A DNA stretch of 64,000 nt from a virus. Of the stretch, positions 18,172 through 63,747 are shown one piece after another. Numbering within the stretch: the first letter of the stretch is position 1; every line of letters begins with the position of its first letter. The stretch lies in the IMG/VR virus record IMGVR_UViG_3300046171_000314, positions 1 to 64,000 of that record; one strand, 5' to 3'. The notes below the pieces were generated by a model, which saw only the letters and a program-made list of their open reading frames with translations, searched no databases and had not been told where the DNA came from. Position numbers and translations under genes: made by a program.

Positions 18172-18172
18172 T

Positions 18173-30233: not shown

Positions 30234-31773
30234 ATGTCACGAGATATCTATTTTGGGTCTGACCTTCGAAAGAGAGTATTGAAAGGAGCACTGACTTTCT
30301 CGAAGACCATAACAAAGACTTATGGTCCTCGATCAGGAACTGTGATGATGAACCGAATGGGAGGTCTTCTCTCAACGAAAGATGGTGTAACAGTAGCAAG
30401 GGAACTACACCTGAAAGACCCTGTTGAAAATATGGGTTGTCAGGTATTGAAAGAAGCCTGCATCAATGTCAATGATGAGGTTGGAGATGGAACTACCACA
30501 ACCGCCTGTATTGCCTCTTCTCTGATACAAGAATCTCACAAGTTGATTACCGCAGGGTATGACCCAATGCAAATATCAAGAGAGTTACGAGAAGCAGCCA
30601 AAAAAGTCGTGGACGAGATACGAGCCAATGCTCTTCCTGTCGAAGAAGAAAGAGAACTTCTACACGTTGCTCTCATCTCTTGCAACAACGATAGGGAGGT
30701 AGCGGAGGCATTAACGGAAGCATCTCTTGCAGTTGGGAAAAATGGAACGGTTGCTATTGAGGATGGGAACTCTCTTGGGATAGAACTTGAATTCAAAGAG
30801 GGATTGGACATCAATAAGGGAGCGGTCAGCACTTACTTTATTGATGGTGTGGAAAGAAAGATGGTTAGTCCTCTCGTGGCAGTGATTCCGAAGGACTTGG
30901 TGGCGGCTGATGATGTGACCTCTGTGCTCGAAGAGAGTTCTCAGTGGCCCCAATAACGATTTGCTGTTGATATGTAAGAGTCTATCAGGGCAGGCACTAC
31001 AAACAATGGTGGTTAATCACACAAAGGGCGTAGTTCGCTCTTGTGCAGTTAGTGTGGCAGGCAGTTCTCTCAGACAAACAGATGTCCTTGCTGATATTGC
31101 TGCGGTCTGTGGGTGCGAGGTTTTGTACCAAGATCAAGGATACAACTCAAAGGATTTCAATCCTGAGTGGTTTGGTTCTTGTTCTGAGGTGTTGGTGCAG
31201 GAAAAGAAGACTGTCTTTATGTCATTTGAGGAGGCACAAGAAAGCATACAAAGGAGAATACGAGAGATTCAAAATGATATGCAGAGTTCCAAGAGTGATT
31301 ACGACAGGGATAGGTATCAAGAGCGAATAGCCAAGTTGTCTGATGGGTTTTGTCTTGTAAAAGTTGGGGGGCACACAGAAGCCGCTATGAAAGAGAAGCG
31401 TGCTCGTATTGAAGATGCTCTCGGTGCGGTTCAAAGTGCCCTTCGATCAGGGATTGTATCAGGAGGAGGTTGTGCTTACTTATATGCCTCTTTATGTTTG
31501 GGAGATGAGGGTGCAGAGGGCATTTTGAAAAGAGCCTTACGAGCACCCTTCAGAACGATTGTAAAGAACGCCAAACAAGAAGATGGTTATGTTTACAAGA
31601 ACTTGTTGGAAAAGCACGAGAACGTTTGGGAAGGTTGGGATCTGTACAATGAAGAAATTGTTAATATGTACTCCATAGGCGTGTTTGATCCATTAGAGGT
31701 AGCAGAGCAGGCTGTTCTGAATTCTGTGAGTGTTGCTGCTCTATTAATGACAGCAGAGTGTGCTATCGTTTAG
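30234..31773 (+). CDS. groEL: GroEL-type chaperonin, interrupted by a +1 frame change
   Basis: Two halves in different frames that together give about 512 residues of a group I chaperonin. The first half has GDGTTTTACIASSL (ATP site with the catalytic Asp) and an equatorial/intermediate domain; the second resumes at the apical domain and has DYDRDRYQERIAKLSDGF, MKEKRARIEDAL (second catalytic Asp) and SGGG. The frame changes at TGGCCCC (30945-30951), where the first half stops nine bases on; removing one C restores ...SQWPNNDLLLI... with no other damage. The second half has no ribosome site. The C-terminal Gly-Met tail of bacterial GroEL is absent, and no groES was found nearby. Phage chaperonins assist folding of virion or replication proteins. 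Confidence 0.85.
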
Positions 31774-31817
31774 GAAGACCTTCGGTAAAGGAAAAGATTA
31801 ATATCGGAGGAGATCTT

Positions 31818-32156
31818 ATGAAAAAAATTAGAATGGATGCAATACGATTGGAAACACACACGCACCAATTAAAGAGAATTTCAAATGTGTATTCCCTGTT
31901 GAGAATGCTTTCCTATGAAAACATTGAAGAGCACAATAAGTGTGAGTACTACTACAAACTATTCCCTGCTTGGAGGATCGATTTCATAAAGGGTCAGCCT
32001 GTCGATATTTCTGTTCTAATAGAACAACCACCAACGGAGGTCTCTTATTCTAGTGATGGGGCATACCTAAGGATAGGTTGGGATACACATGTTATTATGA
32101 TGGGAAAGTACCCTTCTTGTGGGGTTAAGACTTATGTATCCAATAGAGCCAATTAA
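31818..32156 (+). CDS. Unknown 112-aa protein
   Basis: ATG after GGAGGAGATCTT. Alpha/beta, with a Tyr/Lys-rich middle. The frame is open further upstream into groEL but this ATG has the only ribosome site. Unknown family. Confidence 0.6.
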   Translation: MKKIRMDAIRLETHTHQLKRISNVYSLLRMLSYENIEEHNKCEYYYKLFPAWRIDFIKGQPVDISVLIEQPPTEVSYSSDGAYLRIGWDTHVIMMGKYPSCGVKTYVSNRAN

Positions 32157-32415
32157 ACATATCAAAGGCGATGGGGATTGGAGCATCGAGAAACATCAAT
32201 TCAAAATCCCATACCACCCAAAAAACAATGCAAAAGCAGATTGTGTTATTGGAGTTTGTCGTAGTCGAGGAATGGTTGTTGGGGTTATCGCAACAATTCG
32301 AAAAATTGCCGCACCCTACAATGCTGATAAATATGAGTATGCTATTCAGTTAATATTGCACGAAATGATTATCCTTCATTTCTTTGGAAAAGAAGAAATC
32401 GAGATTCCCTTCTGA
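32134..32415 (+). CDS. Unknown 93-aa protein overlapping the previous gene
   Basis: Starts at an ATG inside the last 23 bases of the previous gene, in the +1 frame, with only a weak GGGG upstream. The product (KGDGDWSIEKHQFKIP ... ILHEMIILHFFGKEE) looks protein-like. It could be a coupled gene or the frame-shifted end of the previous one, though no homopolymer lies at the junction. Confidence 0.5.
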   Translation: MYPIEPIKHIKGDGDWSIEKHQFKIPYHPKNNAKADCVIGVCRSRGMVVGVIATIRKIAAPYNADKYEYAIQLILHEMIILHFFGKEEIEIPF

Positions 32416-32832
32416 ACTTCTAAAATAAGTTGAAGGAACTTTGTAAGTTCGATCAGCATCTTAGGGTTTATCTAAATACTTGAAAATACCCCTGTTTCTA
32501 AAACTACATCACAGTTTTAGAAATGTAAAAAAATTCGTGTTTTGTTTCAAAAACCCGACAATTATGTCAGACATAATTCAGGTTATTCCTCTATTATCTA
32601 ACATTGAACACCGTTCAGTTTTTTATGTAACTTACATAAAAAAACGGCTTTCTTGGCAAGATGTGAAGTTCAAGTTCGTGCAATAATAAAGATTGTTTCT
32701 AGGAAGATATGTTGCAACACTATAAAAATGAAAACGCTTCAAATGTTACGGACAAAACTTCGCAGCAATCGTGCTGTTTTTTGCGATGCTAATTTTTCTT
32801 AATTTTTTGATGTCGTTTGGTGTTGAACTTTT
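32416..32832. other. Palindrome-rich AT-rich non-coding gap
   Basis: About 420 bases with no supported gene. Three perfect inverted repeats occur within 150 bases: TTTCTAAAAC/GTTTTAGAAA (32495-32523), AATTATGTC/GACATAATT (32560-32578) and TTTTTTATGTAA/TTACATAAAAAA (32619-32643). A CAGCA/TGCTG hairpin with TTTTTT at 32763-32783 is a terminator. Candidate for an origin, an operator cluster or small RNAs. Confidence 0.6.
32763..32783 (+). terminator. Short hairpin terminator
   Basis: CAGCA-ATCG-TGCTG followed by TTTTTT. Confidence 0.6.
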
Positions 32833-32865
32833 ATGGGTAGGATAAGGAAACACAAGAGAGATGCT

Positions 32866-33270
32866 ATGCCCCAAAAAGAGTTAATTTGTCAGTGCGGAGT
32901 AAAGAGCCGAGCCTACTACAAGAAAGGTGCTCTTATCGTATATTGCGAACACTGTGGTGTCGGACACCCTCTTGCTTTCCCACCCTTTCAAGGGAAAACG
33001 TGTTTGACAGAGGAAGGAAAGGTTACTGCTTCTGAAGATATACCTAAAGGAGATCTTATAGAAAAATGCCCCTTACTTCCAATGCCAACCTCTCCTTTGG
33101 AAATAAGAAACAGTTTAGGGGAAAAAGTCGTTCCATTAGGATTGCTTCTTCGGTATGGAACATCAGAGCAAGGTAATGTAGTTCTGAAAGTCAAACAGAA
33201 ATTCATCTTTGTTTATGCCTTAGCCAATATTATGAAACACGAACCCCTAACTCTCAAGGAGAAGAAATGA
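32866..33270 (+). CDS. Zinc-ribbon protein with possible SET-like part
   Basis: A 134-residue protein (145 if the ATG at 32833 is used). CQCGVKS ... VYCEHCG forms an N-terminal four-cysteine ribbon. The segment KVTASEDIPKGDLIEKCPLL recalls the start of SET-type domains (xAxxDIxKGExIExCP), but later SET motifs are not clear, so this is only a resemblance. Coupled by overlap to the next gene. Confidence 0.55.
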   Translation: MPQKELICQCGVKSRAYYKKGALIVYCEHCGVGHPLAFPPFQGKTCLTEEGKVTASEDIPKGDLIEKCPLLPMPTSPLEIRNSLGEKVVPLGLLLRYGTSEQGNVVLKVKQKFIFVYALANIMKHEPLTLKEKK

Positions 33271-33836
33271 ATGTAATCAATGCCCTCATAGAAAAATATA
33301 AAACCGAATCGTCCGTTCCCTTGCGGAATGACCAAAATATCTACAGTGACTTGATGATTTATCTTGAACCTGAAGAGGACTTTCAAGTTTTTAATAGGTG
33401 GGGCTTTGATATGGCGACAGAGTATAACTTTCAAGCATACAATGGTTTTGAAAACAAATACATTGCTCTTATTTCAGAAGATACTTTATACTCAAAACTT
33501 GTGACAGAGTTGTTAGAGAGAGGGTTGTTGATTGAGTATCTTGAAGGGTTCTCAAGGGATTGGACAACTGAATATTTTGATGATCACTTTGAAGAAGCCA
33601 CCTCTTACACAGAGGTCTATGAAAATGGAGAGGTGACTTTGAAAGGAACACAATCCGCTACAATTTCTTTTGATGATATTTTGAATGAGATAAAAGAAGA
33701 AAACCTTTTGAATTCCCTTTGTCGATTTCTTGATAAAGAAAGCCTCTGTCATTGGAGCAAAGGTTGGTATCAAGATTTGTCCTACACAAGAGAGGCTATT
33801 GATGACCCACGACAACTCAAACTATTCGTGAACTAG
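33267..33836 (+). CDS. Unknown acidic 189-aa protein
   Basis: Overlaps the previous stop (ATGA). Acidic, with many aromatic residues and no recognised motif. Convergent with the minus-strand block that follows; the two genes overlap by four bases. Confidence 0.7.
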   Translation: MNVINALIEKYKTESSVPLRNDQNIYSDLMIYLEPEEDFQVFNRWGFDMATEYNFQAYNGFENKYIALISEDTLYSKLVTELLERGLLIEYLEGFSRDWTTEYFDDHFEEATSYTEVYENGEVTLKGTQSATISFDDILNEIKEENLLNSLCRFLDKESLCHWSKGWYQDLSYTREAIDDPRQLKLFVN

Positions 33837-34297
33837 TTCTTAAAGCGATTGCTCTCACAGGTGTCACAAAGAGTTCTGTGCCACCCTTTGGTACGATGCA
33901 CACCTTGATTACACCCACAAGATTCACAAGTAGTGGAGGACAAGTCTTCGGCATCTGAGAAGATGTCTCGAATGTGGTCATCACCCCCATCAAAGTAAAG
34001 CCGAAGTGTTCCAAACTTTTCCTTCACTTGTGTGAATTCAGGATAGAAAAGTATCTTACTCTCGTCACGTCCTTCATTGACAACTATCTTGTGCCATTGA
34101 TCTATGGTCATAACAGGAACGCCTGCTTTCTCTTGTTCCTGTATGTATGTTTCCACTTTCTCACAGGCTTGATAGATAATGTCGAACCACCCATCATCGC
34201 AAGCACAGCCCCAACACATAGCGGTGTGAGTCATTGGCAAGTCTTTCTGTCGAAACATCTTGGGGAATCGATCATAAAGTTCTTGCTGTCTTTTCAT
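33833..34297 (-). CDS. Phage Cys-rich protein of a conserved unknown family
   Basis: A 154-residue protein. MCWGCACDDGWFDII near the start, VKEKFGTLRLYFDGG in the middle, and a C-terminal TCESCG ... GWHRTLCDTC zinc ribbon are features shared by a common uncharacterised family of phage and bacterial proteins. Nucleic-acid binding is plausible. Last gene of a class 2 minus-strand operon. Confidence 0.75.
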   Translation of the reverse strand: MKRQQELYDRFPKMFRQKDLPMTHTAMCWGCACDDGWFDIIYQACEKVETYIQEQEKAGVPVMTIDQWHKIVVNEGRDESKILFYPEFTQVKEKFGTLRLYFDGGDDHIRDIFSDAEDLSSTTCESCGCNQGVHRTKGWHRTLCDTCESNRFKN

Positions 34298-34779
34298 TAT
34301 CTTTTCTCGCCATCAAGAAAAGGAATCACATCGAGGCAAAAATCCTTGTAAAGTCGTTCTTTTATATCGGCAAGCCCTGCTGATTGGATGGCAGGAGCAT
34401 AGTCACTTTTATGCGTTTCCTCGAAGAAACTCTTCGGTGCGGTTATCGGAGTGTACTTAGAAGGAGATTCCCCCTTTGCCAACGTGTAGGGGGAAGTTGC
34501 ATACCAAAACTCTAATCCTGCTTTGTCTGCAAAAAACTCTGTAAGCGTTCCCATGATAGTATTTTTAAATATATCTCTACACTTACTAATCGCATCCTCA
34601 ACTTTCTTATTGAGATAAAATTTGCGGATGCTTCCAAGTTCTGCTTCAAAGGCTTTGTCTTTCTTTTCAGAGAGGGCTTGAAACAACTCCCACGCTTGGA
34701 GCATAGATTCACGATCTTGTGCCTTACAAGCCCTTACCCAAAGTTCTTTAATCTTTCTTTTATGAGAGTTCGTTAGCAT
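34297..34779 (-). CDS. QA-helical-module protein
   Basis: A 160-residue protein. Residues 1-42 (HKRKIKELWVRACKAQDRES then MLQAWELFQAL) are the N-terminal module also seen in its two upstream neighbours and at 49483. It has a KGESPS loop and a C-terminal helical part. Overlaps the next gene by one base. Confidence 0.75.
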   Translation of the reverse strand: MLTNSHKRKIKELWVRACKAQDRESMLQAWELFQALSEKKDKAFEAELGSIRKFYLNKKVEDAISKCRDIFKNTIMGTLTEFFADKAGLEFWYATSPYTLAKGESPSKYTPITAPKSFFEETHKSDYAPAIQSAGLADIKERLYKDFCLDVIPFLDGEKR

Positions 34780-34782
34780 TAT

Positions 34783-35202
34783 CTAGTAGCCCCCATCTTT
34801 GTAGGGAATTTCTTCGTAAGCAAGGGCTTTATAGAGTTCGTCTACTTGTTTTATCATAGGGCTTTTTTTCATTTCTTTGGCAACCTGTGCGAACAGAAAA
34901 TCAATCGAGTCTTTATAGTTCTCACTATCATTCGGAAAAGCATCGTGAAACAACATTGCACTATCCTCAGTGTACTCTACAATTTCCTTTTTCATAATTT
35001 TAAGAACCGCCTGTTCAATATTGGATGCCCATTCAATGGCGGATTCATTTCTAATTCGTCTAAGTTTTTGTTCTAACTTTTTGTCAGTAGGATCAATGGC
35101 TTGAAACAACTCCCAAGCCTGAATGAGGTCAGCCCTATTTCGCTTTTCAAGCCCCTCTATCCAAAGAGATAGGAGTTTGTCTTTCTGATCTTTTGTTAGC
35201 AT
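34783..35202 (-). CDS. QA-helical-module protein
   Basis: A 139-residue protein beginning MLTKDQKDKLLSLWIEGLEK then RNRADLIQAWELFQAI, closely similar to the downstream neighbour over the first 45 residues and different after that. Three bases separate it from the next gene. Confidence 0.75.
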   Translation of the reverse strand: MLTKDQKDKLLSLWIEGLEKRNRADLIQAWELFQAIDPTDKKLEQKLRRIRNESAIEWASNIEQAVLKIMKKEIVEYTEDSAMLFHDAFPNDSENYKDSIDFLFAQVAKEMKKSPMIKQVDELYKALAYEEIPYKDGGY

Positions 35203-35226
35203 TGATATCTCCTGTATAAGGTTCTC

Positions 35227-35637
35227 TTACATATAAGGGGTCGGGATAATATCTCGAAAGAACCGTTTCTCTTCGTCTTTATTAAGGGCATCTATGAAAC
35301 GAGACATTTGTTGCGAAAACTTATCTGTTACTTCTTTTTTCATATGGGATTCTCGGTAATCGTGGTATCCGTACCAATTTCCTGCGATAACCATACTCCC
35401 CCAAGAGTCCCCATCAGGGTTTAGATAGAAGAGAGCCATCACAAGTTCTTTGTACTTTTTTTCCCACTTTGCCATCCAAGCATCCCAAATTTCAAAGGAT
35501 AGTTCGTGTATTTCTTCTAAGGTTAATCCATCTTTTCCAAGTGCTTGATTCAACTGCATAGCCTGTGAAGCAAGAGAGCGATCATTTTTTTTATAGGCAT
35601 CAAAGAACAACCTTTCGAGTTTCTTTTTATCTGACAT
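35227..35637 (-). CDS. QA-helical-module protein
   Basis: A 136-residue protein with MSDKKKLERLFFDAYKKNDR then SLASQAMQLNQAL at the N-terminus. I chose the ATG behind GGGAGT; the frame is open 11 codons further. First gene of the minus-strand operon under the class 2 motif at 35673. Confidence 0.75.
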   Translation of the reverse strand: MSDKKKLERLFFDAYKKNDRSLASQAMQLNQALGKDGLTLEEIHELSFEIWDAWMAKWEKKYKELVMALFYLNPDGDSWGSMVIAGNWYGYHDYRESHMKKEVTDKFSQQMSRFIDALNKDEEKRFFRDIIPTPYM

Positions 35638-35672
35638 TTTTTTACTCCCGTAATAAACTACAAACCACATAG

Positions 35673-35685
35673 TATAGAAGGACTA
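35673..35685 (-). promoter_or_regulatory. Class 2 promoter motif
   Basis: Minus-strand TAGTCCTTCTATA, about 36 bases before the start at 35637. Confidence 0.6.
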
Positions 35686-35686
35686 T

Positions 35687-35704
35687 TGGTTGGTATAGTG
35701 TTTT
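35687..35704 (+). promoter_or_regulatory. Class 3 promoter-like motif
   Basis: TTGGTTGGTATAGTGTTT about 20 bases before 35724; back to back with a class 2 motif on the other strand. Confidence 0.45.
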
Positions 35705-35723
35705 CTAAAAAGAGGCTCACCAA

Positions 35724-35933
35724 ATGAAAGAGATACTGCAACAAAGACTGTCGGAACTAACGGATTGGAAAAGCAAAGAAAACACTTCTGCTGATGGAGA
35801 CTCCCTGCGGTGTTTGAGGAGTTTAACAGACACAAATGAAAATAACTATCGGAGAGTGCTCCCTCTCATTGTATTTTTTGGTATAGAACGTCAGGCTTAC
35901 GATTACTTACAGAATTCGATAAGGGGGTTGTAA
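35724..35933 (+). CDS. Unknown 69-aa protein
   Basis: Helical small protein; ribosome site weak (AAGAGGCTCACCAA). Coupled to the next gene by TAATG. Confidence 0.6.
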   Translation: MKEILQQRLSELTDWKSKENTSADGDSLRCLRSLTDTNENNYRRVLPLIVFFGIERQAYDYLQNSIRGL

Positions 35934-36226
35934 TGAGTGCTCATTGGTTTTACATACAGCAATGGTCAGCAAGAAGGTGGTCTTATGTGGATATGGAAAT
36001 GCCTTTCAAGGATGCCCATGACCTATTCAAGGCTTTGACAAATACCTTTTCAGAGGACTATTGCAAGCCTTTGGCTTTGGTACAACATCCTGAGGATAAA
36101 TCCATAGGGAAAGTTATTATGTCAGACGAAAATCTAAATGGTTGGGAAATCCTTATGTGTAATGGGCTGTACTCGAATGGTGGAAAAGACGAACCCCTGC
36201 TTGTAAAGAAGGTGCTTGATGGATAG
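35933..36226 (+). CDS. Unknown 97-aa protein
   Basis: Coupled by TAATG. Alpha/beta with SRR-type basic residues in the first third and a beta-rich end. Its stop overlaps the start of the next small gene. Confidence 0.65.
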   Translation: MSAHWFYIQQWSARRWSYVDMEMPFKDAHDLFKALTNTFSEDYCKPLALVQHPEDKSIGKVIMSDENLNGWEILMCNGLYSNGGKDEPLLVKKVLDG

Positions 36227-36353
36227 GTTTCGATACACCATTCATAATATGATTGGACACCCCCTAATGGAGATTTTTTCTTTGTTAGGAATGCACGAAA
36301 GAGCAACGTGGATTCACGATGTGACATTGCCAAAAGAGACCACCAATGTCTAA
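36219..36353 (+). CDS. Small conserved phage protein, 44 aa
   Basis: ATG at 36219 overlaps the previous gene's end, and its stop overlaps the next start. The sequence (HNMIGHPLMEIFSLLGMHER then ATWIHDVTLPKE) matches a small motif I know from other large phages (xHPLMExxxLLGxxxxxxWIHDxTLP). Function unknown. Confidence 0.65.
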   Translation: MDRFRYTIHNMIGHPLMEIFSLLGMHERATWIHDVTLPKETTNV

Positions 36354-36639
36354 GAGGATCATCTTGGGCAGATACTGCCCTGCTTGCGACCACACCTATT
36401 TCAGTAGGGCGAGGCACGACTTCTGTGCCTGCCCCTGTTGGCTTTCTAGTGGGAGAACAACAGGGGGCTACATTGATGGTGGTCGAGACTATGTAAAAGT
36501 TGGTGGAAAGGGAATTACGGTTCGCATAGAAATCTCACAATCGGACAAAGAATTAGAGGAAGATTGGCGAAGCGGAACAAACAAGTACGGTATCCTCAAA
36601 GGGTGTCAAGGAACACCGATACTTGGAGAGAAGAAATGA
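36346..36639 (+). CDS. Cys-rich DUF7695-like protein
   Basis: A 97-residue protein. YCPACDH, RHDFCACPCW and YIDGGRDYVKVGG follow the pattern CxxCGxxIxSxxxHDFxxCxCGxxxxDGGxDYxR of a small phage and bacterial zinc-binding family. Role unknown. Confidence 0.7.
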   Translation: MSKRIILGRYCPACDHTYFSRARHDFCACPCWLSSGRTTGGYIDGGRDYVKVGGKGITVRIEISQSDKELEEDWRSGTNKYGILKGCQGTPILGEKK

Positions 36640-36932
36640 ACATAGATAGAGACCAACTGAGACAACTAGGTATGCAAAAGAGAAAGGTATATACCCTCCG
36701 AAAGAACCAAGAGGGTCTGTCTGCTATTTCAATCACAACCCCTCACATAGAACAAGTGCTTGCTTTATATTCAGAAAAACTATCTGCGGCTATGACGAGT
36801 GGTTGCTTTGTAGAACACGATTGTAAGATCGATCCTAAAAGATTGTTGGGAAAGACCATTATAAGAAAAATGACAATCACAACACAAGAGGGGGATACTT
36901 TTGAGTGGGTTCTCCTGTGTGAAGAAACCTAG
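36636..36932 (+). CDS. Unknown 98-aa protein
   Basis: Overlaps the previous stop by four bases (ATGA), with GGAGAGAAGAA upstream. Basic N-terminus, beta-rich C-terminal half. End of the plus-strand run. Confidence 0.65.
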   Translation: MNIDRDQLRQLGMQKRKVYTLRKNQEGLSAISITTPHIEQVLALYSEKLSAAMTSGCFVEHDCKIDPKRLLGKTIIRKMTITTQEGDTFEWVLLCEET

Positions 36933-36979
36933 TTTTGATTCCTATAAATTATCCAAAATAAAATCAGAGATTGTTTTTC

Positions 36980-37561
36980 CTAAAAGAAATTGTTGATTGC
37001 TTTCGCAATGTATGCGATGTCTTTGCGATAATCTCCTGAAAGTTCACTCTTGGTTACGATATCGCCACCCTTTGCACCATCGTTGTATACCAACCAATCT
37101 GTATTTGGGTTCTCGTTAAGAGAAACTTGTTGCGAATCAAAGGGCTTGCCCCATTGATTCCTGTCTGCACCTTCTTCGTTCCATATCCGATACGCATGCT
37201 CAAAGTATTGAACTACCCACTTTCTTCCGAGAAGTTTAGCAATATCTTTGGCAACTTTATCCCAATTCGTTTCTATGCTGTCCCACCACATAATTATTTT
37301 CTTAACATCAAGTTCGAGTTCAAACTCCCCTTTCACATAAGCGGTGTCTCCTTTAACGACAACCTTAGTAGCCCCCATATACCCAAACCCATCTAAGATA
37401 TCGAGAAGAACAGAATCAATGCTTGCGTTCAAGTCTGCCTCATCTTCATATTCGATAGGATATGGTTTGAAGAATCCCGAACTTGCTTGCTTGTTGAGAA
37501 CATCTCTGATTTCATTGAGTTCTGCGAGTATTCGCTTTCGTGCTTGCTTAGATAATTTCAT
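36980..37561 (-). CDS. LSKQA-type protein
   Basis: A 193-residue protein starting MKLSKQARKRILAEL, then a second KQAS at about residue 24. The opening matches the tandem paralogues at 18173 and 18768. The remainder is alpha/beta with many Trp and Asp. KQA(S) junctions recur in virion-type proteins here and could be protease sites. Class 2 promoter at 37587. Confidence 0.75.
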   Translation of the reverse strand: MKLSKQARKRILAELNEIRDVLNKQASSGFFKPYPIEYEDEADLNASIDSVLLDILDGFGYMGATKVVVKGDTAYVKGEFELELDVKKIIMWWDSIETNWDKVAKDIAKLLGRKWVVQYFEHAYRIWNEEGADRNQWGKPFDSQQVSLNENPNTDWLVYNDGAKGGDIVTKSELSGDYRKDIAYIAKAINNFF

Positions 37562-37586
37562 AGATACCTCTTTGTGGGTATATTTT

Positions 37587-37599
37587 TATAGGAAAATTA
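37587..37599 (-). promoter_or_regulatory. Class 2 promoter motif
   Basis: Minus-strand TAATTTTCCTATA, about 26 bases before the start at 37561. Confidence 0.75.
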
Positions 37600-37614
37600 T
37601 TGGGAGGAGAAGGA

Positions 37615-37905
37615 ATGTCTTTTACAGAGAAACAGAAAATGCTTATAGAGTTGTGTGTCCGAACTATACTTTGTAATCTATTAGAAAGAGAAGAAAGGGA
37701 TATAAATGATTTCACTGCGGGGCTGCACAACATAAACATAGGTTCTTTTGGAGAGAAAGGATTCAAGTTTGAGGATACCAATGATTGGGTTTCTTGTCTA
37801 CAAGACTTGCGTGATATAATCGCCATACTAGATCCTGTGTATCATCAACACACGATTGAAATGGGCGATAAGCCTGCCAAGTTAGAGGAAGAAGATGGCT
37901 CGTAA
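37615..37905 (+). CDS. Unknown 96-aa protein
   Basis: ATG after GGAGGAGAAGGA. Helical; two cysteines. Overlaps the start of the phospholipase D-like gene. Confidence 0.65.
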   Translation: MSFTEKQKMLIELCVRTILCNLLEREERDINDFTAGLHNINIGSFGEKGFKFEDTNDWVSCLQDLRDIIAILDPVYHQHTIEMGDKPAKLEEEDGS

Positions 37906-38470
37906 AGTTTGGAAACGGAAAAAGGGTACAGACCTCAATGCAAAGTTAAACAACAGCCACCATCATACAGGGGCATTGACCGAGTGTTATTTCAGAGAAC
38001 TTGATGTACAACTCGTCAAGTTCATTGAAGAATCGGACAGTGTTGTTGGGTGCTTTGCTTGGCTCACAAATCAGAAGGTAATGAAAGCCCTTGTGGAAAA
38101 GCCCTGTTGTATGGTTCTCCAAAATGAATCTTGGCTCAATAAGAAAGGAGGTCTTGCTGTCAAGACACGCAATATGTACTCCGAACTCAGAGCAAGCAAA
38201 GATAAGTTCAAGGTCGATGGACAAGACATAGAAAAGGACATCTATGTTTGTGGGATGATTTCACACCCACAGAATATGCACCACAAGTTCGCTGTTCGTA
38301 TTGGGAAAGAGGGCACACCACAATCTGTTTGGACAGGCTCGTTCAATCCAACAACAAACGGAAACCAATCAATTGAAAATGCCCTCGTGATTCACAATGA
38401 GGAAGCGGCAAGGGCATACATACAAGAGTTCTTGCAAGTTCGAGATATCAGCAAACCCCTCAAAATCTAA
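37895..38470 (+). CDS. Phospholipase D-superfamily nuclease-like protein
   Basis: A 191-residue protein with a single PLD motif: HHKFAVR (HxK, about residue 131), then SVWTGSFNPT and NALVIHN. Single-motif members such as Nuc act as dimers on DNA. The N-terminal region is basic. Likely cleaves nucleic acid; host-DNA degradation is a reasonable guess. Confidence 0.8.
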   Translation: MARKVWKRKKGTDLNAKLNNSHHHTGALTECYFRELDVQLVKFIEESDSVVGCFAWLTNQKVMKALVEKPCCMVLQNESWLNKKGGLAVKTRNMYSELRASKDKFKVDGQDIEKDIYVCGMISHPQNMHHKFAVRIGKEGTPQSVWTGSFNPTTNGNQSIENALVIHNEEAARAYIQEFLQVRDISKPLKI

Positions 38471-38973: not shown

Positions 38974-39003
38974 AATGAACCTCCAATACATAGAGGTCAT
39001 CTA

Positions 39004-39016
39004 TATAAATAGATTA
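39004..39016 (-). promoter_or_regulatory. Class 2 promoter motif
   Basis: Minus-strand TAATCTATTTATA, about 31 bases before the start at 38973. Confidence 0.65.
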
Positions 39017-39122
39017 TCCACAATAACACGTACAAGAGCAAAGGGGAGTTTATACAAAGTTCGGTTATGGTCTATGGTTTGTGTTGAGAAATCTCAATCA
39101 ATATTTTTTTATATTTTGGTGA

Positions 39123-55585: not shown

Positions 55586-55644
55586 AATGACCTCCGAATG
55601 AAAAATGAAAGAGAAAAAATACAGCAGTTTATCAACTACATCCT

Positions 55645-55670
55645 CTATACGATAGAGAAAATTTTACGTT
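55645..55670 (-). promoter_or_regulatory. Class 1 promoter motif
   Basis: Minus-strand ACGTAAA, 11 bases, CGTATAG then AGGATGTAG. Upstream of 55585. Confidence 0.8.
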
Positions 55671-55676
55671 ACACCT

Positions 55677-56831
55677 TCAGGCTACTTTTATTTTAGCCTC
55701 TGCAATTCTGACAGGGATAAGCGTTGTCAAATCTCCACGATCCGACCCAATATAGGCTTCCTCGCCTTTTCTAGTGAGAGATAAGGTATTGATCCCTGTG
55801 GCTCTGATCAGCCCTGCGGATATCAAATTATTTACCATTTCAACATCTTTTGATGTCTCTTTGCCCCAAGATCCTGATTTCACTGCTCCCAAGATCACCA
55901 TTTGTCTGTGATGATCTTGACCGATCTTCAACAGGTCTTTTCTCATATAGGATTTGAGAACTCTTGCTCTGCTTTCAGATCGATCAATCTCCTCCGCCAA
56001 CTCCCCATCAGACAAATCTGACATAATTGCATTGAGGACTTGTGCGTTGAACTCCCCTTTATGTGTCCCCTCCATTGTATTTATGGCAAGGAGAATACCA
56101 CGATAGGACTCTCGGCTCTCCAACTCCTCTTGATCTATATAGACATCTTCAGGGCTACTGCTATGGTCTACCACCACAGATGTAATGTTGCCCTTATCGT
56201 CAGACACCACCGCTTGATCAAATGAGTCGTGTCGATGTTGAGATTGGGATTCCCCTGATATGACCTCTTGCTTAGACCTCTTGCCCCTTGCACGACAATG
56301 AGCATCTTGACCGCCTTTTTGCGTAGCATTTGTATGCTCTCGCATAGCAAAATTGACGATAACAGAAGCATACACCTTTTTGCCTGCTTTGAGTTGCTTG
56401 TCAAAGGCTCTGTTCTTCAGGGCTTTGGCATTGTAGTTTGCGAGAACATCCTCTGCTTCCTCACCTGTTCCATAAAGTTTGGAGGATAACTTGCGGAGGA
56501 TTTCCTTGTGCATTTTTGGATACTCTGTGCGATACCATGTGTCGGTGAGAGAGTTTTCTTCTTCGGTTTCGATAACAGGTCGTACAGGCTCTGTGGTCTC
56601 TAGGGTATGCTCATAGACACCCCAAGCGAAATCAACGAAGGTTACAGGCTCTGTGCGGCTGTAATAAACATCCTCAGTGATAAGATGGTTCTTATACTCG
56701 GTGAGGGATACCTTGAGATTGAGAGGGGCTACCTCTGTTCTTCTATATAGATTGTCTAGGACAATAGTGGTGTTCGTAATGAATTCTTTGGTATAGTTAG
56801 AAACGAACCACGCCAACGTGCGATTTTTCAT
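55677..56831 (-). CDS. Sigma-factor-like protein A
   Basis: A 384-residue protein. The region around 110-185 (MHKEILRKLSSKLYGTGEEA, EDVLANYNAKALKNR) resembles sigma region 2, and LSDGELAEEIDRSESRARVL near residue 275 is a region-4-like helix-turn-helix. A further winged-helix-like end (GLIRATGINTLSLTRKGEEA) follows. The long Gln/His/Asp-rich middle is unusual. It may redirect host RNA polymerase to one of the two promoter classes; which one is unknown. Alternative: an unrelated DNA-binding regulator. Confidence 0.6.
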   Translation of the reverse strand: MKNRTLAWFVSNYTKEFITNTTIVLDNLYRRTEVAPLNLKVSLTEYKNHLITEDVYYSRTEPVTFVDFAWGVYEHTLETTEPVRPVIETEEENSLTDTWYRTEYPKMHKEILRKLSSKLYGTGEEAEDVLANYNAKALKNRAFDKQLKAGKKVYASVIVNFAMREHTNATQKGGQDAHCRARGKRSKQEVISGESQSQHRHDSFDQAVVSDDKGNITSVVVDHSSSPEDVYIDQEELESRESYRGILLAINTMEGTHKGEFNAQVLNAIMSDLSDGELAEEIDRSESRARVLKSYMRKDLLKIGQDHHRQMVILGAVKSGSWGKETSKDVEMVNNLISAGLIRATGINTLSLTRKGEEAYIGSDRGDLTTLIPVRIAEAKIKVA

Positions 56832-56965
56832 AGGGGTCTCCCATTTTGATCAGTGATGTAGGATTAAGCGTGACCGTAGTCACAAAAGATGAAAATCTTT
56901 ATTACAGACAGTATATCATAGATTCCGAAAAATCGTCAAGGTTTTTGTGCGATAAAGATCCTCAA

Positions 56966-56978
56966 TAATTTGTCTATC
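56966..56978 (+). promoter_or_regulatory. Class 2 promoter motif
   Basis: TAATTTGTCTATC, about 39 bases before 57017. Confidence 0.75.
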
Positions 56979-57016
56979 GAATGTGGTTGGTGAAACTACG
57001 GTTAGGAGTTACAAAA

Positions 57017-58513
57017 ATGAATTTCAAGAAAAAGGCTTTCAGCACAAAAGATAAATCGACCCTGATACGGACATTTATTAATGACCCAAATTTTGGGAAC
57101 TTGAGTAACTATCCTGATATTGTGAGTGCTACGGATTCCCAATTAGCGGAGATGTTTGACTACGTTGTTGTTCAAGGAAAAAGACAGTGGAAAACTGGAC
57201 CTTCAAATATGAACTCAAAGGAATGGACAGAAGAGATAGAGTCAAGGTTCTCCTATTATCTAAGTGGGCAAAACATCAATACGACTATTGATACAACAGT
57301 TGATGACCCCACCCAAATGATAAAAAATGTTCACAGACAAGACAATATTCTTGGGAGGAACATACAAGGTTATATCGGAAGTAAGCCTGCTAACGAGCAG
57401 CACGTAGGACAACTTGCCGCAGGGTTCATTAAGTTTATGGCATCTCGTGTAAAGGATATGCAGAAAAACCATAAGATTATGAGAAGGCACATCAAGAATG
57501 TCACAGAACTTGGTGGGAATACTGATGAAGATGGTGGGCTAGATATAGAAAATATGGCAGATGAAGCCGCTATGGGTGGAGGTCGAGCCACAGGACACAG
57601 GTACTTTTTAAGAAATTGGCACGACTACTACAAGTACTCATCAGAGGTACAACAAATCGGAGAAGCCATTGAAGGCATTGATAGTGTTTTTGTCGACTTG
57701 GTTCAAAATGCGATAGAGCCTGCGATCCTAAAGCAAACCTTCAAGGCAGGCGGTCTGACAATTGAAGAAGAGCGGTTCATCTTCTATGCAGGATTTGGAT
57801 TAGATTACTTCGTTCCTTTTTCAAGTGGATCATCTGAAAACCAAACTCAACAATTGGGGAATATGCGAATTGTTCCTCCTTTCAGAAAGCCCTCTGTGTA
57901 TGACCTTAGTTACTATTTGCTTTGTTCTGCTTTGAAGAGAAGTGGGATGACCTTAAAAGAATTCGGAGATGTTGAAGAGGTAGCAGGAAAAAAATCCAAA
58001 GGGAAGATGTCTGCTAGTGCGAACTATAAGAAATACTTGAAAGCAATAGAAATGGCATTCAATGGGGGGTCAGGAAAGCCTTATGATCAAGTCTATGGGA
58101 ACGCAGGAAAAACAGCCCAAACAACCGCTGCCAAAATAAAAAACACTAATCAATTTGAAGCGAAGGATTTGAACGGATTGCGAGCCATCATCACTAAGAA
58201 GATTGGGTCACAAGGACAGTTTGAGAAAGCGGCTTTCGAACTAACTCAATTCCACATTGAAATGGACGAGGATAAGTCTTATGCGGAATGGCTTCCTGAG
58301 GGCTTTGCTTCGAACTATCCAAAGTACGCAAAAGAACTACTCAAGCACTTTGAAACGTTAGATATAGGACTTACCATCCTTGCAAGTAAGAAAACAGCCT
58401 CTGCTGTTCGTGTTGCAAATGCTTATATGGATAAGTACAAGAACAATCGACTTATCCAACGAGTGGCTTACAAGCACTTGATGAATAACGCCAACCCCAA
58501 AATCAGTTTTTAG
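57017..58513 (+). CDS. Large protein with two C-terminal RVAxxYL tags
   Basis: A 498-residue protein after TTAGGAGTTACAAAA. Mostly helical; a Gly/Ser-rich loop near 175-195 and an Ala/Lys-rich stretch near 345. The C-terminus carries the tag twice, KKTASAVRVANAYMDKYK and LIQRVAYKHLM. This doubling is unique in the window. Family unknown; abundant virion or ejected protein is a guess. Class 2 promoter. Confidence 0.75.
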   Translation: MNFKKKAFSTKDKSTLIRTFINDPNFGNLSNYPDIVSATDSQLAEMFDYVVVQGKRQWKTGPSNMNSKEWTEEIESRFSYYLSGQNINTTIDTTVDDPTQMIKNVHRQDNILGRNIQGYIGSKPANEQHVGQLAAGFIKFMASRVKDMQKNHKIMRRHIKNVTELGGNTDEDGGLDIENMADEAAMGGGRATGHRYFLRNWHDYYKYSSEVQQIGEAIEGIDSVFVDLVQNAIEPAILKQTFKAGGLTIEEERFIFYAGFGLDYFVPFSSGSSENQTQQLGNMRIVPPFRKPSVYDLSYYLLCSALKRSGMTLKEFGDVEEVAGKKSKGKMSASANYKKYLKAIEMAFNGGSGKPYDQVYGNAGKTAQTTAAKIKNTNQFEAKDLNGLRAIITKKIGSQGQFEKAAFELTQFHIEMDEDKSYAEWLPEGFASNYPKYAKELLKHFETLDIGLTILASKKTASAVRVANAYMDKYKNNRLIQRVAYKHLMNNANPKISF

Positions 58514-58749
58514 TTTAATCCATACTTAGCCAACAACTCAGGGGAGGGGATGAATCCAATGTCATTTCCTCCCTTGAACTTTAACAAGAGTTCCTTCACC
58601 TGAGCATCATTCAATCCTCTCAATGCGTTCTCTTGTGCTTGCCAATGAGCCTTTGCAAGTTTTGCAGACTCAGCAGGAACACCAAGACCCTCTATTTTTT
58701 CAATGGGTTGGGGTTTGTTTATTGCAACACTTCTTTTTAGGAAAGCCAT
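58510..58749 (-). CDS. Unknown 79-aa protein
   Basis: ATG after GAGGTGTCCT. Helical, with LNDAQVKELLLKFKGG. Convergent with the tagged gene, overlapping its stop by four bases. Confidence 0.65.
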   Translation of the reverse strand: MAFLKRSVAINKPQPIEKIEGLGVPAESAKLAKAHWQAQENALRGLNDAQVKELLLKFKGGNDIGFIPSPELLAKYGLN

Positions 58750-58785
58750 AGGACACCTCACACAAAGGGGGGGGGAATAAAAGAG

Positions 58786-59610
58786 TTATTGACCATCAAA
58801 GAAAGAGCGTGTCAATTGACGAACTCTTTTGATGCGAGCCGATATCTCTTTGGGTTCTATTTGAAGGCTCTCTGAAATTTCTTTTCGAGTCATTCCTAGC
58901 AAGAGCATATCTAGTATTGGTTCAAGATTTTTTCCGTGCTCTCTTATGAACTTGGCGAGGCTCTTTTTAGCAACCTCTTCCTCTGTCGCATTTTGAGGAG
59001 ATGTATAGTAATCCTCAATTGCTGCTGCTGAGACATCAACAAAGGCTTTGTTTCCATTTTCATCAAAGCCCATTATTCCAACCTGTTCTCTTTCTTTGAG
59101 TTTGTTCATCTTGCGATGATAGTTGGCTACGATACAACCGCACACCATATGGACATAATGTCCAAAAGAACTTTTTGCTGCATCGAAAGGACAGATGCCC
59201 TTATTTCGAGCCAAGATGCCACGATAGATTTCTTGCAAAACATCTTCAGGATCATACCCTGCGGCATAGCATTGTCTTCCAAATCCTGCGTAGAATAGTT
59301 TGCGAACTTCGTGAGATCTGTTCTTCAGATCTATTCCAAGATGAGCGGTACTGACTCTGTGTAGTTCTGCAATAGGGTCGAAAACAGGTTGGGCTTCATT
59401 TGTCCATCGAAAGTATTGTTGGAAAGACATTCTAGTTTTCTTTCCATATAAAGTAGAGAAGAATTGGTAAGCAGACAAGTATTCCTCACCATCCATTTCA
59501 AAGACAACTTTCTCGCCCTTCTTTTTTAATCTGACAAGTCTTGACCCATGTTCTCGTTTGGTGTACATCTCCTGTCCGATAAATTTTTCATAAATTGCAG
59601 TAACCGCCAT
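58786..59610 (-). CDS. Sigma-70-family-like factor B
   Basis: A 274-residue protein. Residues about 98-165 (EVRKLFYAGFGRQCYAAGYD, PEDVLQEIYRGILARN, FGHYVHMVCGCIVANYHRK) follow sigma region 2, including the DPEDVLQE core-binding helix. The last 45 residues (LDMLLLGMTRKEISESLQIE ... RIKRVRQL) match a region-4 helix-turn-helix. It resembles sigma-like proteins of other jumbo phages. It is a candidate late sigma factor for class 2 promoters, by analogy only. Confidence 0.75.
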   Translation of the reverse strand: MAVTAIYEKFIGQEMYTKREHGSRLVRLKKKGEKVVFEMDGEEYLSAYQFFSTLYGKKTRMSFQQYFRWTNEAQPVFDPIAELHRVSTAHLGIDLKNRSHEVRKLFYAGFGRQCYAAGYDPEDVLQEIYRGILARNKGICPFDAAKSSFGHYVHMVCGCIVANYHRKMNKLKEREQVGIMGFDENGNKAFVDVSAAAIEDYYTSPQNATEEEVAKKSLAKFIREHGKNLEPILDMLLLGMTRKEISESLQIEPKEISARIKRVRQLTRSFFDGQ

Positions 59611-59694
59611 CTATCCCCCCTTTCTGTGATTTGCAAGATTAAGGTGTATTGTAAGAGAATAGGTCTTGACTGTCAAAGATTTTAATCAAGATTA

Positions 59695-60042
59695 TCAGTT
59701 AGCCTTTGGCATAAAAAGCCCAAACAATTTCGCCATTTCAGTAACCATTTCGTCATAGTGAGTGAAAATCCAAAACATAAGAATTACCCCTTGTTCTGAT
59801 ACTGTTGCAAAAACAGAGTCCTCCCATTCTTCTTTGGGCGGAAGATCCTTTAGTGCTTCCTCATTGTCCGTTAAGCACTCCAACATAACAAACCACATAC
59901 TTTGCCCCATCAGGTCACCATTACGGAATAGGATCTTACTGCCGCCTTTTAGTACTGCCTTGTGCTTAACCTCCCAACTGATCATTGTTGCCAATGCTGT
60001 TTCAATGGCTGATTTTACTGATTTATATTCGTCTTCTTCCAC
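59695..60042 (-). CDS. Unknown 115-aa protein, GTG start
   Basis: The frame is open far upstream but there it is antisense to thyX; the GTG at 60042 behind TTGGGGGC is the likely start. Helical protein with LMGQSMWFVMLECL and a hydrophobic ILMFWIFTHY. Unknown family. Confidence 0.6.
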   Translation of the reverse strand: MEEDEYKSVKSAIETALATMISWEVKHKAVLKGGSKILFRNGDLMGQSMWFVMLECLTDNEEALKDLPPKEEWEDSVFATVSEQGVILMFWIFTHYDEMVTEMAKLFGLFMPKAN

Positions 60043-60057
60043 AGAAGCCCCCAACGT

Positions 60058-60070
60058 TAATCTTTGTATA
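60058..60070 (+). promoter_or_regulatory. Class 2-like promoter motif (thyX)
   Basis: TAATCTTTGTATA, about 40 bases before thyX. Confidence 0.6.
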
Positions 60071-60109
60071 CTTAGGAGGGTATATCTAAGGATTATCAAA
60101 GGATATGAA

Positions 60110-60757
60110 ATGAAAAAAAATGTCTTGGATAAGGGCTTTGTATCCCTTGTCGATTCGATGGGCAGTGACCTATCCGTAGTAAACTCCGCTAGAGTTTCGT
60201 TTGGAAAGAGAACTGAAAAGATGCGACCTCGTGATGAGAAACTTGTCAAGTACCTTTGGGAGCACAAACATAGTTCTCCTTTTCGACACGCAACTTTGCA
60301 GTTCCATATCAAAGCACCCATTTTTGTTCTCCGACAATGGATGAAACATCAGGTGGGGTGTTCTTGGAATGAGGCGAGCGGCAGATACATAGAGTTCGAA
60401 GGAGATTTTTATCATCCTGAAACATATCGACTTCAAAGTTCCGACAACAAACAAGGCTCGCATGGGCAGATACCAAAACAAGATCAAGCAAAAACCATTT
60501 ACGAAACATGTATGGTGTATGCTCTTAGAGATTACACACGATTACTTGAACTTGGTGTGTGTAAAGAACAGGCTCGTATGGTGTTGCCTCTTTCCCTTTA
60601 CACTGAATGTTATTGGACTTGCTCCCTCCAAGCCCTGATACACTTCCTTTCTTTAAGAGAAGATTCGCACTCTCAGTGGGAGATACAAGAGTATGCTCGT
60701 GCGGTAAGAGAGTTAGTAAAAGAGTTATTTCCTGTGTCCTTAAACTTAGGTCAATAA
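60110..60757 (+). CDS. thyX: Flavin-dependent thymidylate synthase
   Basis: A 215-residue ThyX, the usual size. It methylates dUMP using folate, NADPH and FAD. The signature stretch reads RQWMKHQVGCSWNEASGRY (about 78-96) where the canonical form is RHRxxxxNExSxRY, so the RHR triad is KHQ here; NE..S.RY is intact. HSSPFRHATLQFHIKAPIFV upstream and ECYWTCSLQALIHFLSLR downstream are typical. Start is the ATG at 60110 after AAAGGATATGAA. Confidence 0.85.
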   Translation: MKKNVLDKGFVSLVDSMGSDLSVVNSARVSFGKRTEKMRPRDEKLVKYLWEHKHSSPFRHATLQFHIKAPIFVLRQWMKHQVGCSWNEASGRYIEFEGDFYHPETYRLQSSDNKQGSHGQIPKQDQAKTIYETCMVYALRDYTRLLELGVCKEQARMVLPLSLYTECYWTCSLQALIHFLSLREDSHSQWEIQEYARAVRELVKELFPVSLNLGQ

Positions 60758-60767
60758 CTCTCCTATA
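60755..60767 (+). promoter_or_regulatory. Class 2 promoter motif
   Basis: TAACTCTCCTATA, overlapping the thyX stop, about 28 bases before 60795. Confidence 0.65.
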
Positions 60768-60794
60768 TTTACAGAGGAAATGAAAGGAGAGCAT

Positions 60795-61109
60795 ATGCAC
60801 GGACTACATACAACGGCTTGGGTCTTCGATACAACTGATTACAAAGCAATCAAAGTTATCGACCAATACAGAGATGCAGACCACGCTCTTGCAGGTGCTT
60901 TAAGGATTATCAAAGGCATTATGGAAGAGGTTGTTTCAGAATACACCATTACTTTTTTGAATGATGATGTTGTAATAGGTGGAGAACTCATCAGGGGTAT
61001 TTGCGTGACCGTTGAAGATGCTCCTGTTGGAACTTTTGTGCCTCAGACAGAACTTGAAGAACCCTTCCAACTCGTCGTAGATGGGGAAGAGCACTTTTAT
61101 TTATATTAG
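60795..61109 (+). CDS. Unknown 104-aa protein
   Basis: ATG after AAAGGAGAGCAT. Beta-rich acidic C-terminal half. Probably co-transcribed with the next gene. Confidence 0.65.
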   Translation: MHGLHTTAWVFDTTDYKAIKVIDQYRDADHALAGALRIIKGIMEEVVSEYTITFLNDDVVIGGELIRGICVTVEDAPVGTFVPQTELEEPFQLVVDGEEHFYLY

Positions 61110-61118
61110 GAGAAAACT

Positions 61119-62154
61119 ATGAGTTTAGCGGAGAAAATTCTTGATTGTGATGACCTCATTACTTGGGATTCAGGAAGCATTTCAAGAGAAGATGCTATCG
61201 AAGAGATTGAAGATGCTTTAGACAACAGCCCTTATGGGGGTTATGGGTACAGCCTCAACTCAAAAGATTTGATTTATGTTGAAAAAAAATTGGGTTGGCT
61301 CAGACACCGTACTCATTTTTGAAGACATGGAAGATGCCGAGAAAGAAGCCAAAGAGTATTGGAGAGACTCCTTAGAAGGAGACTCAGGTCTTGTCAATAT
61401 GGAAGAGGCAGGTCGCAATGGGTTCTTGAACAAGTCACACAAAGAAGTTGAAGATGATTGGGTTGAGGGAGAAGTCGAGACATATCAAAAAGACCCTGAT
61501 GATGCTATCTCAGACTTTCAAAGCCTCTCTGATAAAAATGATGAATGGACAGAAGAGATCGAAAGCATTGAAGAAGAACTCGATAACATTAACGATGGTT
61601 GGGATGAAATCAAATATCTTATGAAAGGGATGAGAAAGCCTAAGGAAAAGCCAAGTAGAAAGTCCATCTCACACGGAGAGAAGATTACAGTACTTTTGAT
61701 GTCTGATGACGCAGGTAAAAGACAAGCGGTTGAACTTTTAGAAGCCCTTGCCGATATAGATGAGAATGATCCACAAGAGGTTGCGGATCTCTACGGAATG
61801 TTAGACAAAGCCTATGACACTATGAAAGATGCTTACGATGAGAAAGACGATGAACTAACAGATAAGAAAGATGATTACAAAGATTGGTATCAAAATGACC
61901 TTATCGATCTCATTGCTGATGAAGTAGAAGATCAGGTAAGATCCGACATTCAAATGAACTATCACGGTGATATGTTCTCTTATCTCACTATGCACTACGG
62001 TTTAGATGAAGAAAATGTAATTGAGAATTACTATAATGGCATCGACTATGAAGCCTATGCCGAGCACATCGTAGATCACGGTGGTGCAGGCACTCTGAAC
62101 TCTTATGATGGGAACATTTACGAAGAGTGTGGATTAGTTTGGTTACTCTTTTAG
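61119..62154 (+). CDS. Acidic protein with QA module, interrupted at an A8 run
   Basis: Two frames that join at eight A residues (61282-61289) into about 344 residues if one A is dropped (…LIYVEKNWVGSDTV…). Very acidic and helical. Residues about 186-210 (LLMSDDAGKRQAVELLEAL) are another copy of the QA module. The C-terminus (IDYEAYAEHIVDHGGAG then TLNSYDG) resembles a small domain found in phage antirestriction-type proteins, weakly. Class 2 operon. Confidence 0.65.
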
Positions 62155-62179
62155 AGACTGACTTGTTTTCTGACAATAA

Positions 62180-62210
62180 AAAAGCCGATCATACTTGATC
62201 GGCTTTTTGC
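62180..62210. terminator. Bidirectional terminator
   Basis: AAAAAGCCGATC and GATCGGCTTTTT pair around ATACTT between convergent genes. Confidence 0.9.
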
Positions 62211-62227
62211 ATTATGAGGTGTGTGTT

Positions 62228-63747
62228 CTATTTGTCATTGACAGGTTCTATTTCTTGGGAGATAACTCCTCTTTCCTTTGAAACAACATAGGCTGTTAAG
62301 GCTTTCCGAGATTTGTACCCTGACTTTGCGTGCCAAGCATCTGTTCCTGCCAAAGAAGGCATACGAAATACGGTCACATTACCAAAAGTTGGTAGTTCTC
62401 TTTCGGTGTGAAAGTGTCCTGTGAAAATAAACTTGTTACTTGTGATACCCCATTTCTGTCTTTCTTCTCCTGCAATGATAGCGGGGCCAATCTTTTACTG
62501 AACCGATGTCACCGTGCAAGAAAGCAAGTAAGTTCTCTCCGTAAACCACATACTGTCTGTTGAGCAAAGATTCAACGACCTCAACATTTTCTGTGTTGTG
62601 AAACCAACCCTTCATCGATGCTCTCAATAAGGTGCTCGTGTAGTAATCGTGATTTCCTGCAATAACAAACAAGGTGACAGGAGCGAACTGCCGAACAAAA
62701 TCAACATACTCTCGACAAAGTTCGACCCAAGACCAAGCCAACTCTTCAGGAGTGCCATCACAATCTTGTGCTGTCCCACGAGTAGTCGTCTTACTTTGAT
62801 TGTCTATGTGTAAGCCATCTCCACCAAGAGCAAGGAAAATCTTATCAGGCTGTCCTCTATTTTCTAGTCTTGATAACAATCCTGCTGTTGCAGAAAACAA
62901 ACGCTCCTTTGCTATTTGCCTGTTGTAAGGATCACCTCCAAACTCAGGTCCGTACTTGCCCCAATGAAAGTCAGTTGGAGAGATGACCACAGAATAAGCC
63001 TCCTTCGATTCTTTTAATTTCAAAGGGCGGACTTTATAGTCCCCTGATGTTTGTATGATCTTGTTGAACAGGTCTGCTTGGAGGAACTCCCTTCTTCTAA
63101 ACTTCTCAGCATCTTTCTTTATCTTATTCCATTCCTTTCTTTGGGCTTTCACAAGAACTTGCTCTTCTTTCTTTCTAAGTAGATCTTCAACCAAGTGTAT
63201 TTGTTCTGTGCCTGACATCTCTTCGTCTGTCCAAGGGGCTTGAATCGTGGGTCACACCCATAACTCTCAGTAGTTCAACTACGGTCTTTCGTGACAGCCC
63301 TTGCTTTCTGCAAATCTCATTTATGCTTGCAGGAGCACCATCCCAATTTGAATAGGCTTCCTTGATAGACCTCCAACGAACCGCAGGAATAGCAAGTGGT
63401 CGCTTTCTTGATGGCAAATGTACAACATATAAATCACGATCTTTGTCGTACCAATAAGTTTGATTGTGCTCCCAATTGTCTACTTCAAGTGGAGGAAGAT
63501 TTTCCTCTGAAGCAGACTCAGAACCATAAATCTCTTCCTCAGAAATAGTGTCCTCTTCTTCTATGTCAGGGCTTAATATGTTTTTCAAACACCAAGTACC
63601 AACAGCCTTTGCTTCTTTGTATGAATCAAGACCTAAAAATTCTCCGTGCCTGTCATAAAGCCTCTTCCAATTATATGTTCTTGCTAATGACTTAATGGTC
63701 GCTCTCTGTCCCTCCGACAGAGAACTCCAAAACTTTTCGATATTCAT
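62228..63747 (-). CDS. HTH-metallophosphoesterase fusion, interrupted by two +1 frame changes
   Basis: Three frame pieces that join into about 505 residues. Piece 1 (start after GGGGGATTTTCTTT) has a helix-turn-helix near its end (INEICRKQGLSRKTVVELL). At AGCCCC (complement of 63235-63240) dropping one C gives ...SSPWTDEEMSGTEQ.... Piece 2 is the phosphoesterase core: TDFHWGK, GGDGLH, GNHDYY and HGD. At TGGCCCC (complement of 62483-62489) dropping one C gives ...DWPAIIAGEER... and the missing GHFHTE motif, then a normal end at TAG (62228-62230). So the full five-motif calcineurin-like enzyme exists in the corrected frame. Likely a phage nuclease or phosphatase. Confidence 0.75.

What the first reader, a model, noticed from the sequence alone, without database searches (positions are those of the whole stretch)
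30945..62489. GGCC is almost absent, and its only three sites are frame-breaking TGGCCCC
Reading the whole window by eye I found GGCC only at 30945-30951, 39594-39600 and 62483-62489; base composition would predict on the order of 100 or more. All three are TGGCCCC at a Trp-Pro codon pair, which cannot avoid GGCC, and all three break the frame by +1 in an otherwise intact gene (groEL, C39-like peptidase, phosphoesterase). Explanations: strong selection against a GGCC restriction system, plus base-calling errors at modified GGCC; or a real +1 slip at TGG-CCC-C.
Basis: partly seen in the sequence, partly recalled or inferred. Interest (0 to 1): 0.8.

Follow-up and report, generated by a model that had tools for sequence, protein, structure and literature searches.

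The report
Phage purges restriction sites, reshaping proteins
This large phage has removed almost every short CC/GG palindrome from its DNA, even giving up amino-acid pairs that cannot be written without one; the frame breaks at its three leftover GGCC sites are most likely sequencing errors, not biology.

Summary
GGCC occurs 3 times in the window and 3 times in the whole 147,878-bp virus record (about 281 expected). All three are TGGCCCC at Trp-Pro, each with a +1 frame break. Two things were missed. First, GGCC is one of many purged motifs: CC-N(0-2)-GG, GG-N(0-2)-CC, AGCT, GCGC and CGCG are nearly absent here and in a 289-kb relative, but not in more distant relatives. Second, the breaks are not confined to GGCC: the best-supported others lie at CCTTGG (Pro-Trp) beside C/G runs. 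The relative reads Trp-Pro straight through in intact genes, including TGG-CCC-C twice. The breaks share a DNA context but not one codon event, so motif-linked base-calling error is likeliest; platform and DNA modification could not be checked. The avoidance itself is striking. Only four amino-acid pairs make a purged CC/GG site whatever codons are used: Pro-Gly, Gly-Pro, Trp-Pro and Pro-Trp. These are exactly the four most depleted of about 390 pairs in both genomes (Pro-Gly 6 seen/87 expected and 7/214). Selection on DNA, most likely by host restriction, has thus rewritten the proteome; the three GGCC sites are residual, unavoidable Trp-Pro pairs.

The parts
30234..30956 (+). groEL, 5' part (frame 1)
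   Evidence: Pfam Cpn60_TCP1 E=1.8e-27, phrog_5725; 64% identical to residues 9-253 of one intact 524-aa ORF in G001
30945..30951 (+). TGGCCCC, Trp-Pro, GGCC site 1; +1 break
30952..31773 (+). groEL, 3' part (frame +1)
   Evidence: Pfam Cpn60_TCP1 E=6.2e-26; 59% identical to residues 252-524 of the same G001 ORF
30324..30328 (+). GGTCC: residual Gly-Pro in the GroEL motif YGPRSG, a pair kept despite avoidance
   Evidence: that this Gly-Pro is essential in GroEL is from general knowledge
39594..39600 (-). TGGCCCC, Trp-Pro, GGCC site 2; +1 break in C39-like peptidase gene (39123-40140, -)
   Evidence: relative L120 reads W-P-N-Y-L-V-R-R-P in one frame
62483..62489 (-). TGGCCCC, Trp-Pro, GGCC site 3; +1 break in SbcD-like exonuclease gene (62231-63825, -)
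   Evidence: G001 has TGG CCC GCT in one intact 526-aa frame
63231..63238 (-). CCCCTTGG: Pro-Trp, CCNNGG site; a second +1 break in the same exonuclease gene, no GGCC
51938..51943 (+). CCTTGG: in-frame Pro-Trp in an unbroken ORF
12404..12409 (+). CCTTGG: in-frame Pro-Trp in an unbroken ORF, no C/G run of 3 beside it
57195..57198 (+). the only CTGG/CCAG in the 147.9-kb record (734 expected on both strands)
1..64000 (.). window-wide purge: AGCT 0, CGCG 0, GCGC 0, CCAG 0, CTGG 1, GGCC 3, CCGG 4

Best explanation
The record is a fragment of a large phage whose DNA has been under intense selection against short GC-rich sites (CC-N0-2-GG, GG-N0-2-CC, AGCT, GCGC, CGCG and others), most plausibly because its host carries many Type II restriction systems. 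Synonymous change removed nearly every avoidable site. The amino-acid pairs that cannot be encoded without one (Pro-Gly, Gly-Pro, Trp-Pro, Pro-Trp) were then replaced in the proteins themselves, and a few remain. The three GGCC are three of these remnants, at Trp-Pro. The +1 breaks there, and at several CCTTGG (Pro-Trp) remnants beside C/G runs, are most likely length miscalls in a long-read assembly at residual sites that are probably methylated, not features of the phage. Shown: the avoidance, its depth in the proteins, the breaks, their motif association, intact relatives. Inferred: restriction as the cause, modification, the sequencing platform.
For: Avoidance: GG/CC pairs at spacing 0-2 are 0-8% of expected in both genomes, normal at spacing 4 or more; not seen in LR745208 (GGCC 128/156 in 21.7 kb) or other relatives; seen again in two more IMG/VR contigs of the G001 type. 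Proteome: the four predicted pairs are the four lowest observed/expected of 386 and 397 pairs. In proteins aligned to LR745208, Pro-Gly is kept at 1 of 37 and 0 of 52 columns, against 32% and 27% for other pairs with Pro. Breaks: 7 of 10 C/G runs touching GGCC or CCNTGG are broken against 1 confirmed of 2,434 others (Fisher 9e-18; ascertainment is incomplete). Downstream frames show no decay (84% identity after the SbcD break). G001 has no frameshift in 289 kb by the strict codon model. Nanopore errors concentrated at methylation motifs are documented (PMC6591954, PMC10687267), and errors at GGCC in PMC12345217.
Against: The GGCC errors in PMC12345217 were mostly substitutions and not tied to a known methylation motif. 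About 26 residual GGNCC sites show no confirmed break, and three run-bearing CCNTGG sites look unbroken. The strict codon model also missed most of the homology-confirmed breaks in G000, so its clean result for G001 is weak evidence by itself. Host and its restriction systems not identified.
Confidence: 0.78

Rival explanations
1. Programmed or tolerated +1 ribosomal frameshifting at TGG-CCC-C, so the genes are functional as written.
For: Downstream frames are well conserved; CCC-C and CCC-T are known slippery proline contexts (general knowledge).
Against: G001 reads TGG CCC C in frame in two intact genes and has single-frame orthologues of the broken genes. The window's record has 64 CCC-C and 101 CCC-T in frame in predicted genes. 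The breaks are after Pro, before Trp, after Trp, and one of opposite sign at Tyr-Trp: no common decoding event.
Confidence: 0.05
2. The extra bases are real and adaptive: lengthening the C/G run beside a residual palindrome lowers cleavage.
For: In G001 all 43 GGCC lie in GGCCC or GGGCC, and runs of 4 or more are over-represented there (23 of 43 against 29% background, p=6e-4).
Against: The motifs remain after the lengthening, and the cost would be loss of GroEL, the exonuclease and others. G001 keeps TGGCCC in frame at the same exonuclease position.
Confidence: 0.07
3. The genes are really broken by independent recent mutations (a decaying phage).
For: Several genes are broken in one record.
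Against: Breaks sit at residual motifs and downstream reading frames are not eroded.
Confidence: 0.05
4. The avoidance is mutational (deamination of methylated C), not selection.
For: G001 encodes C5-methyltransferase genes.
Against: At lost Pro-Gly columns the replacements are Glu, Ala, Val, Thr, Phe, Asp, Lys before Gly, mostly not C-to-T products; nine or more motif classes go to near zero.
Confidence: 0.05

Closest known systems
Restriction-site avoidance in phages (Rusinov et al. 2018, PMC6286503)
   Same: Near-complete loss of short palindromic Type II sites; not shared by relatives without the pressure.
   Different: Many motif classes at once in a large genome, and amino-acid pairs that force a site are purged; the words amino acid, synonymous and dipeptide do not occur in that paper.
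Modification-linked nanopore consensus errors (PMC6591954, PMC10687267; GGCC in PMC12345217)
   Same: Errors cluster at specific short motifs or homopolymers while the rest of the assembly is clean.
   Different: Here they are length errors in C/G runs at residual sites; platform and modification unverified.
Programmed +1 frameshifting at proline codons (general knowledge)
   Same: CCC-C or CCC-T at five of the breaks.
   Different: Not conserved in relatives, no common codon event, same codon context read normally elsewhere.

Membership tests
Restriction-site avoidance | Depletion of specific short sites beyond composition | tested here: met
Restriction-site avoidance | Specific to the motif spacing, not to base composition | tested here: met
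   CC/GG and GG/CC near expectation at spacing 4-8
Restriction-site avoidance | Absent in relatives not under the same pressure | tested here: met
   LR745208 and IMG/VR relatives
Restriction-site avoidance | Host carries restriction enzymes for these motifs | not testable with these tools
   host unknown; no related phage contig in genome contigs
Programmed +1 frameshift | Shift site conserved across relatives | tested here: not met
   single-frame orthologues in G001, L120, L041
Programmed +1 frameshift | Same slip event at every site | tested here: not met
   positions and signs differ
Modification-linked base-calling error | Errors concentrated at a motif | tested here: met
   7 of 10 against 1 of 2,434 runs
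Modification-linked base-calling error | Native-DNA long-read platform | not testable with these tools
   record name and platform not given
Modification-linked base-calling error | Motif is chemically modified | not testable with these tools
   no signal data; no PF00145 or PF01555 methyltransferase in the 148-kb fragment

The most novel reading that the evidence does not exclude
One broad-specificity defence that senses CC and GG half-sites 0-2 bases apart, rather than six or more separate restriction systems, drives the purge, and the phage answers by rewriting its proteins as well as its codons.
Probability: 0.15. Interest if true: 0.85.

Novelty: new variant of a known kind. Interest (0 to 1): 0.6.

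Why it matters
Restriction avoidance is usually described as loss of sites in DNA. Here the genetic code predicts which amino-acid pairs must be given up, and exactly those are missing, by 4- to 30-fold. That makes protein sequence a readable record of past restriction pressure, usable on unassigned viral contigs. It also warns that frame breaks in such records can be technical and motif-linked.

Tried and rejected
TGG-CCC-C slip (rejected on relatives and on in-frame CCC-C/CCC-T counts). GGCC alone as the target (other motifs equally purged). Breaks only at GGCC (rejected: 63237, 72252, 131661). A relaxed codon HMM was too noisy: it flagged ordinary gene joints in both genomes; the strict one missed most homology-confirmed breaks. 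Search for the same site in other IMG/VR contigs found none. Host search in bacterial genomes found no relative.

Full report
Observation. GGCC occurs three times in the window and three times in the whole 147,878-bp IMG/VR virus record G000; about 281 were expected. All are TGGCCCC at Trp-Pro with a +1 break, in groEL, a C39-like peptidase and an SbcD-like exonuclease.

The avoidance is broad. In G000, AGCT, CGCG and GCGC are absent and CCAG/CTGG occurs once (734 expected). Pairs CC..GG and GG..CC are 1-8% of expectation at spacing 0, 1 and 2 and close to normal at spacing 4 and more. A 289-kb relative, G001 (contig 3300046167_000825), shares this core and differs in detail: CCTG/CAGG 17 of 1,356, CCGG 0, GGACC/GGTCC 0. 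Two further IMG/VR contigs nearly identical to G001 show the same. More distant relatives do not: LR745208 (485 kb, portal 67% identical) has GGCC 128/156 in 21.7 kb, and the other portal relatives show no comparable purge of GG/CC sites.

The proteome follows. Enumerating codons shows only four pairs that cannot avoid CC-N0-2-GG or GG-N0-2-CC: Pro-Gly, Gly-Pro, Trp-Pro, Pro-Trp. They are the four lowest observed/expected of 386 pairs in G000 (PG 6/87, WP 3/20, PW 4/20, GP 20/87) and of 397 in G001 (PG 7/214, GP 25/214, WP 5/39, PW 8/39); the next lowest are 0.43 and 0.48. In relatives PG is 131/132 and GP 109/132, though WP is also low there (11/24), so the Trp-Pro signal is the weakest of the four. 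The effect is not a gene-calling artefact: CCNGG occurs only 7 times in all of G000, which caps Pro-Gly. Against LR745208 orthologues Pro-Gly is kept at 1 of 37 columns (G000) and 0 of 52 (G001), against 206/641 and 249/907 for other pairs with Pro; replacements are varied and mostly not C-to-T products.

The breaks. Frameshift-aware alignment to G001 gives further breaks at 63237 and 72252 (CCCCTTGG), 131661 (CCTTGGGG) and 146967 (Tyr-Trp, opposite sign, 0.9 kb from the contig end); a G8 run at 130470 beside CCTTGG also changes frame (judged by eye against G001). A possible break in an A run at 115794 lies in a Glu/Lys repeat and is uncertain. Of 10 C/G runs touching GGCC or CCNTGG, 7 are broken; of 2,434 other runs, one is confirmed. 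This count is biased, because breaks can be confirmed only where a homologue exists. In-frame Pro-Trp at 12404 and 51938 is unbroken.

Reading the breaks. G001 has six in-frame Trp-Pro, all TGG CCC, and two are TGG CCC C read straight through. Its strict codon model shows no frameshift in 289 kb, although the same model missed most of the confirmed breaks in G000. Because the breaks share a DNA context but not a codon event, and downstream frames are undecayed, I judge them technical. Nanopore consensus errors concentrated in methylation motifs are documented (PMC6591954), also for untrained modifications (PMC10687267), and residual errors at GGCC in two isolates (PMC12345217, there mostly substitutions and with no methylation found). 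I could not establish platform or modification for this record.

Tolerance pattern. In G001 all 43 GGCC are GGCCC or GGGCC and none is flanked otherwise. Many of them lie at Gly-Pro or Trp-Pro. This fits with the Trp-Pro remnants all using the codon CCC; why GGCCC is tolerated is unknown.

Literature. Site avoidance is well known (PMC6286503). I found no paper in the held library that reports loss of unavoidable amino-acid pairs; that library lacks most subscription journals, so this is not proof of novelty.

Noticed in passing
G001 225274-228142, 267023-268156 (L248-L251): The relative G001 encodes C5-methyltransferase genes (PF00145), two of them adjacent, plus several N6/N4 methyltransferase matches (PF01555), yet still avoids sites; none found in the 148-kb G000 fragment.
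   Followed up: partly
window 57195; G000 whole record: CCAG/CTGG, a non-palindromic 4-mer, is purged in G000 (1 of 734), while G001 purges CCTG/CAGG (17 of 1,356): a different asymmetric target in each phage.
   Followed up: no
G001 (L151-L165): All 43 GGCC in G001 are GGCCC or GGGCC; none lies in any other context, and runs of 4 or more are over-represented. Unexplained.
   Followed up: partly
G000 130470; L007 6470: A G8 run beside CCTTGG where the reading frame changes relative to G001.
   Followed up: partly
window 23014-24519: 501-aa protein with a strong match to phrog_850, 'RNA-binding protein' (E=3e-133).
   Followed up: no
G000 and G001 proteomes: Met-His is the next most depleted pair (0.43, 0.48); ATG-CAY always holds TGCA, itself moderately avoided.
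   Followed up: no
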